From positions 1 to 64,000 of the forward strand of contig JACMLN010000092.1 of NCBI GenBank assembly GCA_014379585.1: a stretch of DNA of 64,000 nt, read 5' to 3'. Within the stretch, counting starts at the first letter, position 1; every line of letters starts with the position of its first letter. The notes beneath the pieces were generated by a model. It did no database searches. It was not told where the DNA came from and was given only the letters and a program-made list of their open reading frames with translations. The DNA is from Gloeobacterales cyanobacterium ES-bin-313. GTDB lineage: Bacteria > Cyanobacteriota > Cyanobacteriia > Gloeobacterales > Gloeobacteraceae. The translations under genes were made by a program, and so were the position numbers. This document shows, piece after piece, positions 44,467 to 54,446 of this stretch.

Positions 44467-44966
44467 GACTCTGCGGGTGCCTCTTCATCGGTTTTGGGGC
44501 GCACGACGAGGCGGCGCTCTGGTTCTTTGCCGCGACTGAAGGTATCGAGATCCGGTTCTTCTTGAAGCAGGACGTGAATATGGCGACGTTCCGCAGCGTT
44601 GAGATTGCCGAAGACGTACTCTTCTTGGGTCTCGCGGACTTTAGCGGCAGCTTCCCAAGCCATATCCGTCAATTTCTGCAGATGTTCGATGCGGTGGTTG
44701 GCAAGTTCGACAGTAAACAGGGTCTTTTTGTCATCCAAGACGTGCATGGTCGTGTTCAGCATGTACTGGAGCGCATCAAGGGGCTCGCCTTCGTTGCCTA
44801 GCAGGAGCGCCTTTTGACGGTCATCTAGATCTGTGGAGCTGATCTCCAGCCAAGGCTGCTCCGTAAGCGGCGTTGGCGATGGGATTGTCGCCACGTCGGC
44901 AGGTGTTCCCATCAGTTGGAGAACCGTTTTGAGCCAGTTTTTTGCTTCTTCTTCTGGAGTTTCCAT
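44463..44966 (-). CDS. khpB: RNA-binding protein KhpB (Jag/EloR), KH-R3H
   Basis: A 167-residue protein with a KH-like segment (about 40-80; NEGEPLDALQYML) and an R3H domain (about 90-150; NLNAAERRHIHVLLQEEPDL and REPERRLVV-type ending). The Jag_N domain found in firmicutes is absent, as is usual in cyanobacteria. It directly follows yidC with a one-base overlap, the conserved yidC-jag order. Confidence 0.9.
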   Translation of the reverse strand: METPEEEAKNWLKTVLQLMGTPADVATIPSPTPLTEQPWLEISSTDLDDRQKALLLGNEGEPLDALQYMLNTTMHVLDDKKTLFTVELANHRIEHLQKLTDMAWEAAAKVRETQEEYVFGNLNAAERRHIHVLLQEEPDLDTFSRGKEPERRLVVRPKTDEEAPAES

Positions 44967-46081
44967 CAGGCTTTTTTCTTGCGACGCGATTTGTTCTCGA
45001 AAGGCAAGGGCTTCTCGCCATCTTCTTTGCGCTTTTGCTGGTCGATCACCCGCTGAATATTTTCAGGTAAGGGTTCACGGTAGAGCACGACGGTCTGGAA
45101 GATCTGAAAGAGGTTGCCAAGCAAAATGTAGAGTAGCACGCCAGCAGGCAGCGGGAAGAAGATAAACATCCCGGTGAAGATAACCGGGGTAAACTTATTG
45201 ATCTGTTTTTGCTGGTCGGTGATGTTTGGGTTGTTTTTGGAGGTCAATTGGGTCGAGAAATAGGTCGAGATGCCAAACAACAAGGTCATGAACAAGTTGT
45301 CCCAGTGGATCCCCTCTTTGCTTTGCACCCCAGAACGACCCAGTTGTTCGATGAACAGAAAACTACTCTTCGCGGCAACACCAGGAACAGTCGTATGCAC
45401 CTGGACATCGCCTACTGCACTCGTCTTGAGCAGGCCAGTTTCGGCATCAATGGTTGCCTTGTCACTGCCACCGGGAATTTCAAACGTTGGCTTCAAGTTA
45501 GGTGGATTAAAGGGCTGATCCTTGCCTGTCAAAACCTTGAACTGCACCGTTTGGCCAACAGGCACATCGGCTGAGTTTGGACTGAAAGTCACCACTTCAC
45601 GCTCTTTCATGCCATCGGTGAGATAGATCGTGTGTTGGCCACTCGTCCCATCAAGTTTGACCTGAGTGATCTCGGTGGTGGGCTTGATGTGTACTGTCGA
45701 GATTTGGACGACATCCCCGAACGGTGAACCACGCAGGGTCGCAAATAGAGCAAAAAGAATGGGCATCTGAAAAAGCAAGGGCAAGCAGCCAGCCAAAGGA
45801 TTACCGAACTCTTTGTAGATCGCTTGTGTTTCAGCTTGAAGCTTCTCAGGCTCGTTTTTGAACTTTTCCTGAGCCTCTTTCATGCGGCGCTGCATTTCAG
45901 GCTGCACCAACTGCATCTTGCGCGCGTTGCGGATCGTGCCTGCGGTCAAGGGCCAAAGACCACCCTTTACCAATAAGGTCAGCAGCACAATCGCCATGCC
46001 GTAATTCGGGATAATTCGATAGAGAAAATCCAGAATCGGCAGCATGAGGTTGTTGGTCAAAAAACTGATGCCAAAGTCCAT
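44966..46081 (-). CDS. yidC: Membrane protein insertase YidC/Oxa1/Alb3
   Basis: Inserts proteins into plasma and thylakoid membranes. The 371-residue protein starts with a membrane helix, has the cytoplasmic positively charged helical hairpin (RKMQLVQPEMQRRMKEAQEKFKNEPEKLQ), GCLPLLFQMPILFALF, then a roughly 130-residue hydrophilic insert (about 125-265) before the last helices, and a Lys/Arg-rich C-terminal tail. The insert is typical of cyanobacterial YidC. Here the gene heads the run with khpB, yceD and the HEAT gene; rnpA is not upstream. Confidence 0.95.
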   Translation of the reverse strand: MDFGISFLTNNLMLPILDFLYRIIPNYGMAIVLLTLLVKGGLWPLTAGTIRNARKMQLVQPEMQRRMKEAQEKFKNEPEKLQAETQAIYKEFGNPLAGCLPLLFQMPILFALFATLRGSPFGDVVQISTVHIKPTTEITQVKLDGTSGQHTIYLTDGMKEREVVTFSPNSADVPVGQTVQFKVLTGKDQPFNPPNLKPTFEIPGGSDKATIDAETGLLKTSAVGDVQVHTTVPGVAAKSSFLFIEQLGRSGVQSKEGIHWDNLFMTLLFGISTYFSTQLTSKNNPNITDQQKQINKFTPVIFTGMFIFFPLPAGVLLYILLGNLFQIFQTVVLYREPLPENIQRVIDQQKRKEDGEKPLPFENKSRRKKKA

Positions 46082-48326: not shown

Positions 48327-50465
48327 ATGTTGGATCTCTTTAAGGACGCTTTAAGCAATCTCGTGAACGGCGACTTAAGCAAGGGAGTTGTTGGACAGTT
48401 CATCAAAGCTATCCCTGAGGCCGCGAGAAAGGAGCTTGGCGAAAGTTCTGAGGCTGAACAGATCCTCCGCCAATTGATCGATGGTTTTGCCGAATATCAC
48501 AAGCATTTCGAAGACAGGCATGGGCAGTTGAAAGTCATCGGTCGTTCTAAGCCCATTTCTCTTGAGTCGGTTTACGTTGCGGCCAAGTGTTTGGATTTAG
48601 AACAGGTAGACTCCTTCAAATCTCTTGAAGAACAAGAAGCAGTATTCCGTCTGCAAAGCCATCGTCAGAAATTTAACGAGGCTCCCAAGGGACCCCAAGA
48701 TGTCCTGGCACTTGCCAATCAAGAAAAGTACTTAATGTTGCTAGGGGCGCCGGGAGCAGGTAAATCGATCTTTATGCGTAAGATTGGCCTCGAAGCCTTG
48801 GAAGGTTCTGGATCTGGGTACGAACATGACTGCTTTCCCGTGCTGCTGGATCTGCGCAAAACAGCGGCAAGTGTACCGAAAATCGTTCAGCAAATCGCAA
48901 ATGAGTTTAAGCATTTTGACATTCCGTATTCTGAGGAAGGAACGGCTGGATTGTTGGAGAAAGGTCAGTTGCTGATCCTTTTTGATGGTCTTGACGAGAT
49001 ATCCGATCAAGACCGCGACGGGATTGTTGGCACCATAAGGGATTTTGTGGATCGCTACGGCCAGAATCGCTTTGTGATTACTTGTCGCACAGCGGCCTAC
49101 AAAGATTACTTTTCAAAGTTCACGAACACTGCAATTGCAGACTTTGACGGTTCTCAGATCCAGCAGTTTATCCAGTTGTGGTTTGAGGAGAATGCGCAAA
49201 TAGCCAACGAACTCTGGAAGTTGCTTGAAAGCGGCGAACACGAAGGCACTCGCGCGCTGTGTACCAGCCCACTGCTTTTGACAATGATTTGTCTGGAGTA
49301 CAGACGTTCCTTACAATTGCCCAACAACCGGGCAGTGCTCTTTGAAAGGGCACTGCGGCTCTTTTTAGAGGAATGGGATGCCTCCAAACTGATTCGTCGT
49401 GCTGAGGTTTATAAGGGGCTAGATACCCGATCCAAAGAGATTCTCCTTGGCGATATTGCTCTTAGTTCCCTTGAAGCGGATCGTCCATTTTTTCACCGCA
49501 CTGCTCTAGCAAAGCAGATCACAGATCTCATGAAAGACTTGCGGCCTGAGGAAAAAAATGTTGATAGCAATGCAATGATCGAGGCCATTGCAAAACAGCA
49601 TGGTCTATTGGTCGAGCGTAGTACCGATGTTTACTCTTTTTCCCAACTCACCCTCCAGGAGTATCTTGCGGCAAAAGCGGCTGTGGACAAAAGAGCTTTT
49701 CCTGATCTCGTAGAACAGCATCTCGCCAATTCGCGATGGCGCGAAGTCTTCCTGTTATCGGCAGGGTTGCTCAATCCTGCGGATCAACTGCTCCTCTTGA
49801 TCGAGCAGGAAGCCCAGAAATTGATGCAGACAACAGCGCTTCGGGATCTCCTCCTTTGGTGTGATCGCATTCCCTGCGGTTCCAGTGGGCGATTTATGAC
49901 TGCCTACGGTCGCGCTAGTGCCTTGGCTCTCGCCCTTGACGTCAACCGCAAACCAGCCCTCGAACGCACCCGCACTCTTGCCCATAAGCTCTCCCGCGCC
50001 CTATCTCTGGATCTGGCCTCAGACCGGGCTTTAGCCCTAGATCTTACCCTTGCCTTGGATCTAGAACGCACCCGTGCCAAAGCCGTAGATCGCACACTTT
50101 CTCGTGCCCTTTCCACTGAGCGTGCTCGCACTCTGGATCTCTCCCGCACTCTCGCCCGCGTCCGGACCTACGCATTCTCTCAGTTTTTCTCAGAAGACCT
50201 TTGCGCGTCTTTGATGAAATTTACACAACTGCCAAAAGAAAATTCGATGGATCGTTTCGAAGAAATGCGTACATCCATCTTGGAAGTTTTGGATATGCCC
50301 CTTCAAGCCCTCAGTTCAGAAGACTATGGGACATTGGCAGATTTCTTGGCTGCCCAACAGTTATTGGTAGACTGCCGAAACGCAGCAGTTCGTGTCAGCC
50401 ATCAGGTCTGGGAGTCCATCTTGGAGAGAATGTTGGTCGTTGCTCCTTCGTTACTGAGTATTTGA
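48327..50465 (+). CDS. NACHT-family STAND NTPase with Ala/Leu/Asp/Arg repeat C-terminus
   Basis: A 712-residue protein. The N-terminal 1-125 is helical with no named domain. The NACHT module has Walker A GAPGAGKS (140-147), Walker B ILFDGLDEI (Asp220, with Asp223-Glu224), the sensor-like ITCRTAAY (251-258), and the downstream motif FSQLTLQEYLAA (438-449) typical of bacterial NACHT proteins. Residues about 530-615 are a low-complexity repeat of ALALDL..RTRTLA-like units. Bacterial NACHT proteins include antiphage sensors, which makes defence possible; no effector domain is evident. The next gene, 54 bases on, encodes a CHAT protein. No ribosome-binding site is obvious. Confidence 0.88.
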   Translation: MLDLFKDALSNLVNGDLSKGVVGQFIKAIPEAARKELGESSEAEQILRQLIDGFAEYHKHFEDRHGQLKVIGRSKPISLESVYVAAKCLDLEQVDSFKSLEEQEAVFRLQSHRQKFNEAPKGPQDVLALANQEKYLMLLGAPGAGKSIFMRKIGLEALEGSGSGYEHDCFPVLLDLRKTAASVPKIVQQIANEFKHFDIPYSEEGTAGLLEKGQLLILFDGLDEISDQDRDGIVGTIRDFVDRYGQNRFVITCRTAAYKDYFSKFTNTAIADFDGSQIQQFIQLWFEENAQIANELWKLLESGEHEGTRALCTSPLLLTMICLEYRRSLQLPNNRAVLFERALRLFLEEWDASKLIRRAEVYKGLDTRSKEILLGDIALSSLEADRPFFHRTALAKQITDLMKDLRPEEKNVDSNAMIEAIAKQHGLLVERSTDVYSFSQLTLQEYLAAKAAVDKRAFPDLVEQHLANSRWREVFLLSAGLLNPADQLLLLIEQEAQKLMQTTALRDLLLWCDRIPCGSSGRFMTAYGRASALALALDVNRKPALERTRTLAHKLSRALSLDLASDRALALDLTLALDLERTRAKAVDRTLSRALSTERARTLDLSRTLARVRTYAFSQFFSEDLCASLMKFTQLPKENSMDRFEEMRTSILEVLDMPLQALSSEDYGTLADFLAAQQLLVDCRNAAVRVSHQVWESILERMLVVAPSLLSI

Positions 50466-50519
50466 CAACGGTTATTGGGCTAGCTAACTTTAAGATGATT
50501 TGAAATTCTGAGGGTTTTG

Positions 50520-53297
50520 ATGCGCCTTATGAGAGCTATTCTGTTAGCAACTTTACTGACTGTTGGAGTAAGTACAACCCTTACTGTGCCCACATTTTAT
50601 GCAGTACAGGCGCAGGATACCTTAAGCGAGGCAGAACGTCTCTATGCTCAGGCAAACAGTCAGATTAAGGCAAGCCAACTTCGTGATGCCTATCAATCGT
50701 TGCAACAGGCGTTGTCACTTTTTCGCAGTGCCCAAAATCAACCGGGCGAGGCAAAAACGTTAGAAACTTTGGGGATTGTTCTCTTTGTCGCTGGACAACC
50801 TGCTCAAGGAGTCGGTTACCTACAACAGAGCCTGAAGATAGTACAGGCAATTGGTCTATCACAAAATGAGTTACGGCTTTTAGGGAATTTGGGTTCGGCC
50901 TATACCAGTGCGAAAGACTATACCACTGCTCGAAAATATCTAGAACCGAGGTTGGTATTGGCGCGCAACTTAAAGAATGTGGAAGCAGAAGGGGAGACAT
51001 TAGATAAGCTGGCAAGTACCTACGCATCAGAAGGCAATTATCCAAAAGCGTTGAGTCTCTTCCAGGAGTACTTGGTGATTCTTGGAAAACAGCCTGATCG
51101 CAAAGCCACCATGGAAACCCTTGCCAATGTGGGTAGGCTTCATTTGCTTCTGAAGAACTACCCCAAAGCCCTTGATGCTTTTCAGCAATCTCTAAATCTT
51201 GCTGGTACCCTCAACGACCGCAAAGCTGAAATTGTTGCGCTTTCAGGCTTGGGGCAAGTTTATTCTGAAAACGAGAATTTTTCGAGTGCTCTCCCTTACT
51301 TTCAGCGGGCAGCCGAAACTGCGCGCGCAATTCAAGACAGTAACAAAGAGCTGATCGCTCTACAGGACTTGGCTTCTACTTACTACGCTCTTGGTGCCTA
51401 TGCCAACTCAGCAAGCCTTTACTATCAAAGTCTTCAGATTGCCCAAAAGAATCAGGTTCCAAGAAAGGAATTAACAGCCTGGAATGGCCTCGGTAATTCA
51501 ATGTATCAAGTCGGGGATCTAAAAGGTGCAGTTGACTATTACAAACACAGTTTAGAGGTCGCCAGATCCTTAAAAGATCGTTCAGCCGAAGGGCAGGCAC
51601 TCGGAAATCTTGGACTTGCGTATGCTGAATTGGGCGATGATTATCCAACGGCAATCCAATACTACGAACAGGATTTGGCCATCGCTCGCGAATTGAAAAT
51701 GCCTCTCGCCGAAGGGCAAGCCCTGGCTTTTTTGGGGAAAGTTTATCTACAACTAGAAGACTATACAAAGGCGAGAGATTACAATCGCAAAAGTGCTGAA
51801 ATTCTCGGTGCGCTCAAATATAGCCGAGGAGAAGGTCTGTCCTACGTCAACTTGGGTGTTGCACTTTTGAAACTCGGCAACTTGAGCGAATCTGAAAAAG
51901 CTTTGCGAAAAAGTGTAGCTGTACTTGAACCCCTCCAAGCGAAAGTGAGTGGCGACAAGGCGGATGCGCTACGCGTTTCTTTATTCGAGCAGCAGCAGCG
52001 TAGCTATTCAGCACTTCAACAGGTATTGATTGCGCAAAACAAGCCTACTGAAGCGCTTGAGATCGCCGAACGAGGACGAGCACGGCCTTTCGCTGAGTTG
52101 CTTGCTGAACGTTCTTCCGCCAAGCCTACCAGTACTTTAATGGGCATCAGTCAGATTCAGCAAGTTGCCAAAGAGCTAAATACGACACTTGTTGAATATT
52201 CAACAATTACCGACCTTGTTAAAGTCAATAACAAATCTCAACTAAAAGTCACTGAACTGTTCATCTGGGTGATTCAACCGACAGGTAACGTCCGCTTTAA
52301 ACGTGTAGATCTTAGACCAATCTTAAAAGATGGGAGCAATACCCTCGATAGTCTGGTGCGCAGTAGTCGCGAGTCTCTAGGGGTTACGGGTCGTGGCGGC
52401 ATTCGTATCGCTGCTACTAATAAACCGACAGAGCTAGGCAACTTAAATCAGCTACACAAACTCCTCATCGAGCCAATTAGTGAATTCTTACCAAAGGAGC
52501 CAGGAGCGAATGTCGTGTTCGTGCCTCAGGACGCGCTATTTTTGGTGCCTTTCTCCGCTCTCAAAAGTGCTACTGGCTCTTACTTACTTGAAAGTTACAC
52601 ACCTTCGTTTTCCCCCTCGATCCAGGTGTTGCAACTCAATCACCAGTTAGCCAAGCGCGGTGCAGGCACGACCCCTTCTGAAGTGCTGGTGATGGGCAAT
52701 CCCAAGATGCCGAGCGTACCCGATGAGAACCAAAAACCGGTTCAACTTGCAGCGCTACCTGGTGCCGAATTGGAAGCGAAACAAGTAGCCAGCTTACTAA
52801 AGACCCAAGCAGTCATTGGTACACAGGCGACCAAAGCTTTCCTGCTGCCAAGAATGACTCGCTCTCGCATCATTCACCTAGCGACCCACGGCCTTCTTGA
52901 TGACAGCATTGCTGGTTTAAGTATCCCTGGCAAGATCGCCTTTGCGCCTTCTGGTCAAGATAATGGTTTACTCTCAGCGGATGAAGTCTCCAACTTAAAA
53001 CTGAATGCAGACTTAGTCGTATTGAGTGCCTGCGACACAGGACGTGGACGCATTCTTGGCGATGGAGTTTTCGGACTATCACGAGCCTTTATGTCCGCTG
53101 GAGCACATAGCCTAATTGTCTCACTCTGGTCAGTTCCCGATGCACCAACTGCTTTTTTGATGTCTGAGTTCTACCGAAATCTTCAAACAAATAGCAACAA
53201 GGCGGCAGCACTACGGCAGGCGATGCTGACCACCCTGAAGCGAAGCCCCGATCCTAAAGATTGGGCTGCCTTCGTCCTCCTCGGCGAAGTCCAGTGA
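50520..53297 (+). CDS. Exported TPR-CHAT caspase-like peptidase
   Basis: A 925-residue protein with a signal peptide (residues 1-33; hydrophobic core, VQAQ end), about eleven tetratricopeptide repeats (about 35-500, pattern A..YF..AL.I....) and a C-terminal CHAT domain (about 620-925). The caspase-like dyad is His790 in HLATHGLL and Cys838 in LSACDTGRG. Cyanobacteria have many TPR-CHAT proteins with unknown substrates. ATG 50520 is preceded by AGGG. It follows the NACHT gene by 54 bases, so they may be cotranscribed, but the signal peptide puts it outside the cytosol. Confidence 0.9.
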   Translation: MRLMRAILLATLLTVGVSTTLTVPTFYAVQAQDTLSEAERLYAQANSQIKASQLRDAYQSLQQALSLFRSAQNQPGEAKTLETLGIVLFVAGQPAQGVGYLQQSLKIVQAIGLSQNELRLLGNLGSAYTSAKDYTTARKYLEPRLVLARNLKNVEAEGETLDKLASTYASEGNYPKALSLFQEYLVILGKQPDRKATMETLANVGRLHLLLKNYPKALDAFQQSLNLAGTLNDRKAEIVALSGLGQVYSENENFSSALPYFQRAAETARAIQDSNKELIALQDLASTYYALGAYANSASLYYQSLQIAQKNQVPRKELTAWNGLGNSMYQVGDLKGAVDYYKHSLEVARSLKDRSAEGQALGNLGLAYAELGDDYPTAIQYYEQDLAIARELKMPLAEGQALAFLGKVYLQLEDYTKARDYNRKSAEILGALKYSRGEGLSYVNLGVALLKLGNLSESEKALRKSVAVLEPLQAKVSGDKADALRVSLFEQQQRSYSALQQVLIAQNKPTEALEIAERGRARPFAELLAERSSAKPTSTLMGISQIQQVAKELNTTLVEYSTITDLVKVNNKSQLKVTELFIWVIQPTGNVRFKRVDLRPILKDGSNTLDSLVRSSRESLGVTGRGGIRIAATNKPTELGNLNQLHKLLIEPISEFLPKEPGANVVFVPQDALFLVPFSALKSATGSYLLESYTPSFSPSIQVLQLNHQLAKRGAGTTPSEVLVMGNPKMPSVPDENQKPVQLAALPGAELEAKQVASLLKTQAVIGTQATKAFLLPRMTRSRIIHLATHGLLDDSIAGLSIPGKIAFAPSGQDNGLLSADEVSNLKLNADLVVLSACDTGRGRILGDGVFGLSRAFMSAGAHSLIVSLWSVPDAPTAFLMSEFYRNLQTNSNKAAALRQAMLTTLKRSPDPKDWAAFVLLGEVQ

Positions 53298-53435
53298 ACA
53301 CCCAATCACTGGCAATATCCATTTGGCTCCCTTTAGGTCAAGCAACGAAAATTAACTTTTGTATAACCTGAAAAAGCAAATTATATAAATGAACAGATGC
53401 TAGGATTCTGCTGCATTTCAACCAAGAATAAAGTG

Positions 53436-54065
53436 ATGGAAGACAATCTTGAAAATGACCCAACTCAGAATCCATCTGGTATGGATCAGAACGCTATCTT
53501 GTTCGACGAATCGGCGTTTGGCGAATCCTACGGTGTGATGGGGATTGGTGGTGCTGCATCGGACAGATCGGCAAACAACGATGCTGACCGCGTTGAGGAA
53601 TTGGCAGAAAGCTTTGAGCGCGTAGGCGAGGAATATGATCTGCCACCTGCTCTACTCGCTGGTATTGCTAGCCGTGAGAGCCATGTTGGTGACGTGTTGG
53701 GTCAGTACGGTAGCCAGCCCGGTTGGGGAGATCATGACAACGCCTATGGCATGATGCAAATTGACCAACGCCATCATACTGTTGATGAGAGCAATGGTCC
53801 TCTTGGCGAGGCTAATATTGAGCAGGGGGCTGAAATCCTCTCGGGTTATCGTGACGACATTACTGAGGCGCATCCAGACTGGACAGAGGCGCAGCAGTTA
53901 CGGGGAGCAGTCACTGCCTATAATTCCGGTGTTCGTAATGTCCAGACACTAGGCGGACTCGACCAAGGAACGACTGGCAATGATTACTCAGGGGATGTGT
54001 GGGCACGAGCGCAGGTTTTCGCCGAGGATGTTTTTGACGATGATCAAGAATGTGAGCAACCCTGA
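53436..54065 (+). CDS. Goose-type lysozyme homologue (GH23-like)
   Basis: A 209-residue protein. The C-terminal two thirds (about 50-205) match animal and bacterial g-type lysozymes: GIASRESHVG with catalytic Glu81, GWGDHDNAYGMMQID with Asp99 and Asp110, QGAEIL, DWTEAQQLRGAVTAYNSGVRNVQ and GTTGNDYSGDVWARAQ. The Glu-Asp-Asp spacing equals that of goose lysozyme after allowing for one 5-residue insertion. It would cleave peptidoglycan. No signal peptide is visible; the first 50 residues are acidic and Asn/Gly-rich. ATG 53436 or an in-frame ATG at 53397 may start it. Confidence 0.88.
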   Translation: MEDNLENDPTQNPSGMDQNAILFDESAFGESYGVMGIGGAASDRSANNDADRVEELAESFERVGEEYDLPPALLAGIASRESHVGDVLGQYGSQPGWGDHDNAYGMMQIDQRHHTVDESNGPLGEANIEQGAEILSGYRDDITEAHPDWTEAQQLRGAVTAYNSGVRNVQTLGGLDQGTTGNDYSGDVWARAQVFAEDVFDDDQECEQP

Positions 54066-54446
54066 GTCATTTTGAATTTCTATACGAGTTGTCGCGTTTC
54101 ACTTTTCAATTGAGCGGTTTAATCACAAGGTATATAGTGGCAAACTATTGCGAATGCCGATCAAAACTCGCAGTATTTCTACTTTGGTGAGTTAGATAAA
54201 TATAGCGGACTGCATTAGGGGGCAGGGGCAAGCCCCGCCCCCTAAAACCCCCGCCCCTTGGGGGACAGACTGCCTGTCCCCCAAACCCCCTCGGCAACTT
54301 TTATGGCTTGATACTCGGAATTGCATCGGGCGCTACGCGTGGTGATGCGGAATTGGAGGGGGATCGGGTGAGGTCTGGGTTAGCGATGGGATGTGCATTG
54401 GGTTTAGATCCCTCTTTCACTCATTGCGATGGCGAATTGGTATTAC
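54066..54446. other. Non-coding region between lysozyme and kinase genes
   Basis: No convincing gene. The left half is AT-rich. The right half has the GC-rich palindromic repeat described separately. A small rightward frame at 54308-54574 has no features of a real gene and overlaps the kinase gene. Confidence 0.6.
54215..54290. repeat. GC-rich double-hairpin element (REP-like)
   Basis: Two successive palindromes. The first (54215-54245) pairs TTAGGGGGC-A-GGGG with CCCC-GCCCCCTAA with one bulged A; the second (54258-54284) is a perfect 11-bp stem TTGGGGGACAG/CTGTCCCCCAA with loop ACTGC. Runs of C between them allow alternative pairings. Form and extragenic position are those of dispersed cyanobacterial palindromic repeats; no other copy lies in this window, so dispersal is inferred. 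Confidence 0.7.

What the first reader, a model, noticed from the sequence alone, without database searches (positions are those of the whole stretch)
53436..54065. Goose-type lysozyme with complete catalytic residues but no export signal
Glu81, Asp99 and Asp110 keep the spacing of goose lysozyme after one 5-residue insertion, and TAYNSGVRNV and GTT.DDY-like blocks match animal enzymes. G-type lysozymes are patchy in bacteria. The lack of signal peptide means either cytosolic storage, release by lysis or phage-like holin, or delivery by a secretion system through the acidic N-terminal 50 residues.
Basis: partly seen in the sequence, partly recalled or inferred. Interest (0 to 1): 0.6.

Follow-up and report, generated by a model that had tools for sequence, protein, structure and literature searches.

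The report
Signal-less goose-type lysozyme in a cyanobacterium
A cyanobacterium carries a small, catalytically complete goose-type lysozyme without an export signal; its closest sampled relatives are lysis enzymes of bacterial viruses rather than animal lysozymes, so it most likely is a phage-type lysin kept in the genome, and the proposed secretion tail is simply part of the enzyme's own fold.

Summary
Window 53436-54065 (+) encodes a 209-aa goose-type lysozyme (GH23): E = 1e-32 to goose lysozyme, 42-44% identity, Glu81/Asp99/Asp110 matching goose Glu73/Asp86/Asp97 after a 5-residue insertion, and a predicted fold superposing on animal g-type lysozymes. Neither start gives a signal peptide.

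The interpretation needs correcting. The "acidic N-terminal 50 residues" are no delivery tag: residues ~19-50 are the first part of the g-type domain, also present in goose, phage and cyanobacterial relatives. Closest by identity and in the full tree (94/83) are signal-less lysins on phage contigs, one in a lysis-type gene order; animal enzymes form their own clade, though an animal grouping is not rejected (p-AU 0.11). No phage genes flank the window gene. A contractile injection system occurs elsewhere in the genome, but its presence across genomes does not track the lysozyme.

New: a few percent of sampled cyanobacterial genomes carry close g-type domains, mostly fused to M15/M23 peptidase and peptidoglycan-binding domains, several directly beside NB-ARC STAND NTPases, more often than chance. 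Here NACHT and CHAT-TPR genes lie upstream.

Best reading: a phage-endolysin-type g-lysozyme retained by a cyanobacterium. A link to NLR-like conflict systems is possible but unproven.

The parts
53436..54065 (+). g-type lysozyme CDS, 209 aa, single catalytic domain, no signal peptide
53397..53435 (+). possible 13-codon upstream extension (ATG at 53397); no signal peptide in it either
53481..53483 (+). alternative start, Met16 (MDQNAIL...), the start position that matches phage relatives (e.g. MPTNAIL in L034)
   Evidence: inference from alignment A3
   Evidence: aligned with goose residues 13-45, phage lysins and cyanobacterial fusions
53676..53678 (+). Glu81 codon, catalytic acid (goose Glu73)
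53706..53720 (+). 5-residue insertion YGSQP (residues 91-95) relative to animal enzymes; a similar insertion is in cyanobacterial L082 (GGNKP)
53730..53732 (+). Asp99 codon (goose Asp86)
53763..53765 (+). Asp110 codon (goose Asp97)
50517..53297 (+). CHAT peptidase with TPR repeats and an N-terminal signal-peptide-like segment, 139 bp upstream, same strand; possible operon partner (not shown)
   Evidence: no terminator-like site found between the two genes
48327..50465 (+). NACHT STAND NTPase with NCH2 domain, 52 bp upstream of the CHAT gene; possible partner (not shown)

Best explanation
The gene encodes a stand-alone g-type lysozyme (GH23) of the signal-less, endolysin-like kind found in phages, retained in this cyanobacterium without the rest of a phage. 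Glu81 should act as the general acid and Asp99/Asp110 should position the water that splits the MurNAc-GlcNAc bond of peptidoglycan. Having no export signal, the enzyme should stay in the cytosol and reach peptidoglycan only when the inner membrane is breached: by a holin (of a co-resident or infecting phage), by membrane damage, or by programmed cell lysis. Shown here: family, triad, fold prediction, lack of signal peptide, nearest sampled relatives in phage contigs, absence of phage genes next to the window gene. Inferred: enzymatic activity, cytosolic location, phage origin, the trigger that gives it access to the wall.
For: Family and triad. AlphaFold model pLDDT 82, Foldseek best hits are animal g-type lysozymes only, E 1e-10 to 4e-9, rmsd mostly 1.1-2.1 A, with lytic transglycosylases far behind at E 8e-3 or worse. 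Highest-identity relatives are phage lysins: 46% over residues 4-196 (L032) and 51% over 46-189 (L033), against 42-44% for animal enzymes. The relatives on viral contigs are small and without signal peptide: L033 and L034 sit near terminase large and small subunit genes (phrog_2, phrog_426), L035 next to a portal/head-tail gene (phrog_332). In L034 the order is small two-helix membrane protein (holin-like), lipoprotein (o-spanin-like), lysozyme (roles read by eye, no PHROG hit). Tree of 34 domains: window plus L032-L034, support 94/83; animals a separate clade, 99/99.
Against: The gene is not in a prophage: neighbours are NACHT, CHAT-TPR, Ser/Thr kinase and nitrate-transport genes. No holin or spanin next to it. 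Base composition and codon use do not mark it as a recent import (GC 0.52 against 0.51 for the window; codon adaptation 0.750, the lowest of 28 genes but close to its neighbours). In a smaller tree the phage grouping drops to 75/72, and neither grouping with cyanobacterial fusions (p-AU 0.15-0.23) nor with animals (p-AU 0.11) is rejected. Cyanobacterial fusion proteins are close by path length, so vertical or within-phylum descent with loss of the extra domains is possible. Myxobacterial g-type lysozymes could not be sampled.
Confidence: 0.5

Rival explanations
1. A lytic effector of an NLR-like conflict system: the NACHT STAND NTPase (and the CHAT peptidase) upstream sense phage or stress and release or activate the lysozyme, so that the infected cell lyses before the phage is finished.
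For: NACHT and CHAT-TPR genes lie directly upstream on the same strand, with 52 and 139 bp gaps and no terminator-like site between CHAT and the lysozyme. Related signal-less peptidoglycan hydrolases of other cyanobacteria lie directly beside NB-ARC STAND genes: L078, L079, L080, L085, with NACHT-type STAND genes next to L082. NB-ARC genes number only 2-15 per genome; chance of 4 or more of 10 loci having one within 3 kb is 3e-6, or 0.002 for 2 of 7 when orthologous loci are collapsed. Published precedent: lysozyme-like and papain-like peptidoglycan-attacking domains fused to the EAD1 adaptor in STAND-linked conflict systems (PMC7159879).
Against: The statistic was devised after seeing the loci and the distance was chosen by me. 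The window's neighbour is NACHT, not NB-ARC, and the CHAT protein appears exported, so the three may not meet. No EAD or other adaptor domain was found in P0001. PADLOC gives no hit for the lysozyme and only a weak one for the NACHT protein. Peptidoglycan lies outside the cytosol, so a membrane-breaching partner is still needed.
Confidence: 0.2
2. A cyanobacterial cell-wall or anti-competitor enzyme descended from the multi-domain M15/M23-PG_binding-g-lysozyme proteins, delivered by an unrecognised route (non-classical export, vesicles, or release from lysing cells).
For: Six other Cyanobacteriia genomes carry strong g-type domains (E 8e-51 to 1e-65), mostly fused to VanY/M15 or M23 peptidase and PG_binding_1, and most of these proteins also lack a signal peptide. 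A window-plus-cyanobacteria clade is not rejected (p-AU 0.15). L082 shares a 5-residue insertion at the same place.
Against: Highest identity is to phage lysins (49%) rather than the fusions (38-44%). The gene is absent from the 8 other genomes of its order. No export route is evident.
Confidence: 0.2
3. Cargo of the genome's contractile injection system, addressed by its acidic N-terminus.
For: The genome encodes a sheath, three tube-like proteins and a further CIS-like gene on contig C39.
Against: Different contig; the N-terminus is part of the g-type domain; sheath present in 5/10 genomes with the lysozyme or a GH23 relative and 6/10 without, including four family members that lack the lysozyme.
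Confidence: 0.04
4. Recent transfer from an animal to the cyanobacterium.
For: 42-44% identity to vertebrate enzymes; a window-plus-animals clade is not formally rejected (p-AU 0.11).
Against: Higher identity to phage lysins; animal sequences form a 99/99 clade of their own; no intron and no extra cysteines (one Cys).
Confidence: 0.03

Closest known systems
Animal goose-type (g-type) lysozymes, GH23 (goose 153l, salmon 3mgw, cod 3gxk)
   Same: Catalytic triad, TAYN.G..NV and GTT..DY blocks, whole-domain fold, N-terminal segment
   Different: No signal peptide, no disulfide cysteines (one Cys), pI 4.05 against 9.3-9.9 for the animal domains, 5-residue insertion after the catalytic Glu region
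Signal-less g-type lysins on phage contigs (IMG/VR 3300042876_001176, 3300031251_000133, 3300006104_000187, 3300031251_000072, 3300025327_000027)
   Same: Small single-domain proteins, no signal peptide, NAIL-type start of the domain in several, up to 51% identity
   Different: Those lie among phage packaging, portal or lysis-type genes; the window gene does not, and is far more acidic (pI 4.05 against 5.8-9.4)
Cyanobacterial VanY/M15-PG_binding-g-lysozyme and M23-PG_binding-g-lysozyme fusions (L078-L083)
   Same: 38-44% identity over the g-type domain, mostly signal-less, several beside STAND NTPases
   Different: Multi-domain (475-1072 aa); the window protein is the bare catalytic domain
Myxobacterial g-type lysozymes described in PMC11576321 and PMC12855814
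   Same: Bacterial g-type lysozymes close to animal ones, per those papers
   Different: Could not be retrieved or compared here; cyanobacteria are not mentioned in either paper
Lysozyme-like EAD1 effectors of STAND-linked conflict systems (PMC7159879)
   Same: A lysozyme-type domain in an NTPase-regulated conflict setting
   Different: The window protein has no fused adaptor domain and its link to the NACHT gene is only positional

Membership tests
g-type lysozyme (GH23) | Glu and two Asp catalytic residues in the g-type spacing | tested here: met
   E81, D99, D110
g-type lysozyme (GH23) | Whole-domain sequence similarity to g-type rather than SLT-type enzymes | tested here: met
   E 1e-32 to goose lysozyme against 9e-7 to Pfam SLT
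g-type lysozyme (GH23) | g-type fold | tested here: met
   Predicted model, nine PDB hits at E 1e-3 or better, all g-type
g-type lysozyme (GH23) | Muramidase activity | not testable with these tools
   Needs purified protein
Phage endolysin | No signal peptide, single catalytic domain | tested here: met
Phage endolysin | Close homologues in phage genomes | tested here: met
Phage endolysin | Located in a phage or prophage with holin or spanin genes | tested here: not met
   Neighbours are cellular genes
Contractile-injection-system effector | Encoded with the CIS, or co-occurring with it | tested here: not met
Contractile-injection-system effector | N-terminal loading tag outside the catalytic domain | tested here: not met
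   Residues 19-50 are domain; only residues 1-16 remain outside
STAND/NLR-type conflict system effector | Gene next to a STAND NTPase | tested here: met
   NACHT two genes upstream
STAND/NLR-type conflict system effector | Conserved linkage in related genomes | tested here: inconclusive
   Linkage seen for relatives, not for orthologues of this gene, none of which was found
STAND/NLR-type conflict system effector | Activation of the effector by the NTPase | not testable with these tools
   Needs genetics or biochemistry

The most novel reading that the evidence does not exclude
Cyanobacteria have recruited goose-type lysozyme domains, bare or fused to peptidases, as signal-less wall-cutting effectors controlled by NLR-like STAND NTPases (NB-ARC or NACHT), so that infection leads to lysis from within: the same lysozyme fold that animals use in immunity working downstream of NLR relatives in bacteria.
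Probability: 0.17. Interest if true: 0.75.

Novelty: new member of a known kind. Interest (0 to 1): 0.4.

Why it matters
Recent papers derive animal g-type lysozymes from bacteria and discuss myxobacteria, without mentioning cyanobacteria; signal-less g-type lysins in phages and cyanobacterial fusions widen the donor pool that such trees need. If the STAND neighbourhood is functional, it would add a wall-cutting output to bacterial NLR-like systems. As an isolated gene the finding is a modest one: a known enzyme family in an unusual host.

Tried and rejected
Signal peptide from another start (53397, 53436, 53481): none. Actinomadura locus L002: 47% over 51 residues, but interrupted by a stop and with no open frame of a lysozyme, and a profile search of that genome finds nothing; at best a remnant or a chance match. 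Actinobacterial phylum search with the profile: only weak matches (best E 2e-7), no strong g-type domain. Plasmids: one distant NlpC/P60-GH23 fusion in Skermanella. First phylum search with the single sequence suggested the gene was almost unique in cyanobacteria; a profile search of another draw showed it is rare, not unique. CIS cargo tested by sheath co-occurrence and dropped. PliG inhibitor not searched for. Myxobacterial sequences could not be fetched with the scans left.

Full report
Observation. The ORF at 53436-54065 (+) is intact and encodes 209 residues. Sequence search against solved structures gives only animal g-type lysozymes, best E 1.2e-32. E81, D99 and D110 occupy the positions of goose E73, D86 and D97; one 5-residue insertion (residues 91-95) lies between the first two. 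A model built from the window protein and viral relatives (pLDDT 82, pTM 0.82) matches animal g-type lysozymes in the PDB at E 1e-10 to 4e-9, with lytic transglycosylases MltF, MltC and MltE far behind. By sequence, fold prediction and active site this is a g-type lysozyme, not an SLT-type lytic transglycosylase; activity is untested.

Export. None of the possible starts gives a signal peptide. Alignments reject that: residues ~19-50 match the beginning of the domain in phage lysins (for example NAILSEYSPSG... in L032 and NAILTHYMPTG... in L034), in cyanobacterial fusions (NAILYELTPTGAS... in L083) and in goose lysozyme from residue 13. Only about the first 16 residues lie outside. The whole protein, not just its N-terminus, is acidic (pI 4.05, net charge -34), the most acidic of the relatives compared and of 28 genes of the window. 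The reason is unknown.

Relatives. Profile scans of viral contigs found g-type domains in small signal-less proteins: L032 (46% over residues 4-196), L033 (51% over 46-189), L034 (38%), L035 (45%), L012 (35%). L033 and L034 lie by terminase genes and L035 by a portal-type gene. L034 has a holin-like and an o-spanin-like gene directly before the lysozyme; I read these two roles by eye, PHROGs gave no hit. Salisaeta icosahedral phage 1 has a more distant relative. In cyanobacteria a first search with the single sequence found no strong match outside the window's genome (386 genomes); the profile, in a different draw of 390 Cyanobacteriia genomes, found strong domains in six others and a weaker group in SH3-type proteins. 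Most strong ones are fused to VanY/M15 or M23 peptidase and PG_binding_1 domains. None of the eight other genomes of the window's order has it.

Tree. With 34 domains the window protein groups with L032-L034 (94/83), then with L083, then with the other cyanobacterial fusions; animals form a separate 99/99 clade. With 16 close rows the phage grouping is weaker (75/72), and holding the window with cyanobacteria (p-AU 0.15-0.23) or animals (p-AU 0.11) is not rejected. The direction of transfer is therefore not settled.

Neighbourhood. Upstream on the same strand are a NACHT STAND NTPase (48327-50465) and a CHAT-TPR protein with a signal-peptide-like start (50517-53297); downstream are two Ser/Thr kinases on the other strand and a nitrate-type ABC transporter. 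No phage gene is next to it. Codon use and GC do not single the gene out. No terminator-like site lies between CHAT and the lysozyme, and promoter-like sites are not above chance.

STAND linkage. Looking at the flanks of the relatives, four loci have an NB-ARC STAND gene within 3 kb (L078, L079, L080, L085) and L082 has NACHT-type STAND genes next to it. The genomes hold 2-15 NB-ARC genes each. The chance of four or more of ten is 3e-6, or 0.002 for two of seven with the orthologous loci L078-L080 and L084/L086 collapsed. This test was made after the pattern was seen. A published survey already reports lysozyme-like domains fused to the EAD1 adaptor in STAND-linked conflict systems (PMC7159879). 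I keep this as the most novel reading, not as the main one.

Injection system. The genome has a sheath gene with tube-like genes on contig C39. Across 20 genomes the sheath is present in 5 of 10 with the lysozyme or a GH23 relative and in 6 of 10 without, so co-occurrence gives no support for a cargo role.

Verdict. A real, catalytically complete, signal-less g-type lysozyme; most likely of phage-endolysin type and retained in a cyanobacterium. The secretion-tag idea is rejected. What lets it reach peptidoglycan is open.

Noticed in passing
L009 7842-12173 (G000 contig C39): Contractile injection system cluster in the window's genome: sheath (569 aa), three tube-like proteins and a further CIS-like gene.
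   Followed up: partly
L078, L079, L080, L083 (cyanobacterial genomes): Signal-less multi-domain peptidoglycan hydrolases combining VanY/M15 peptidase (and mostly PG_binding_1) with a g-type lysozyme; not found described in the papers searched.
   Followed up: partly
L084 and L085: Clusters of signal-less wall hydrolases: M15 peptidase next to a PG_binding-GH23 protein, and in L085 an amidase-like gene, beside an NB-ARC gene.
   Followed up: no
window 53436-54065: Extreme acidity of the lysozyme (pI 4.05, 21% Asp+Glu), the most acidic of all relatives and neighbours compared; animal g-type domains are basic.
   Followed up: partly
window 49900-50200: The NACHT protein carries a stretch of repeated Arg/Leu/Ala/Asp-rich units (ALALDLTLALDLERTRAKAVDRTL...).
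   Followed up: no
window 44966-46081: YidC/Oxa1-type insertase (60KD_IMP) with a Big_2 Ig-like match inside it, an unusual combination.
   Followed up: no
L002 5001-5156: Actinomadura kijaniata stretch resembling the start of a g-type lysozyme but broken by a stop: remnant or chance match.
   Followed up: partly
L031 4287-5534: Skermanella plasmid pSM-1 protein fusing an NlpC/P60 peptidase to a GH23 domain.
   Followed up: no
window 54210-54290: G+C-rich palindromic repeats downstream of the lysozyme gene (GGGGGCAGGGGCAAGCCCCGCCCCC and GGGGGACAGACTGCCTGTCCCCC).
   Followed up: no
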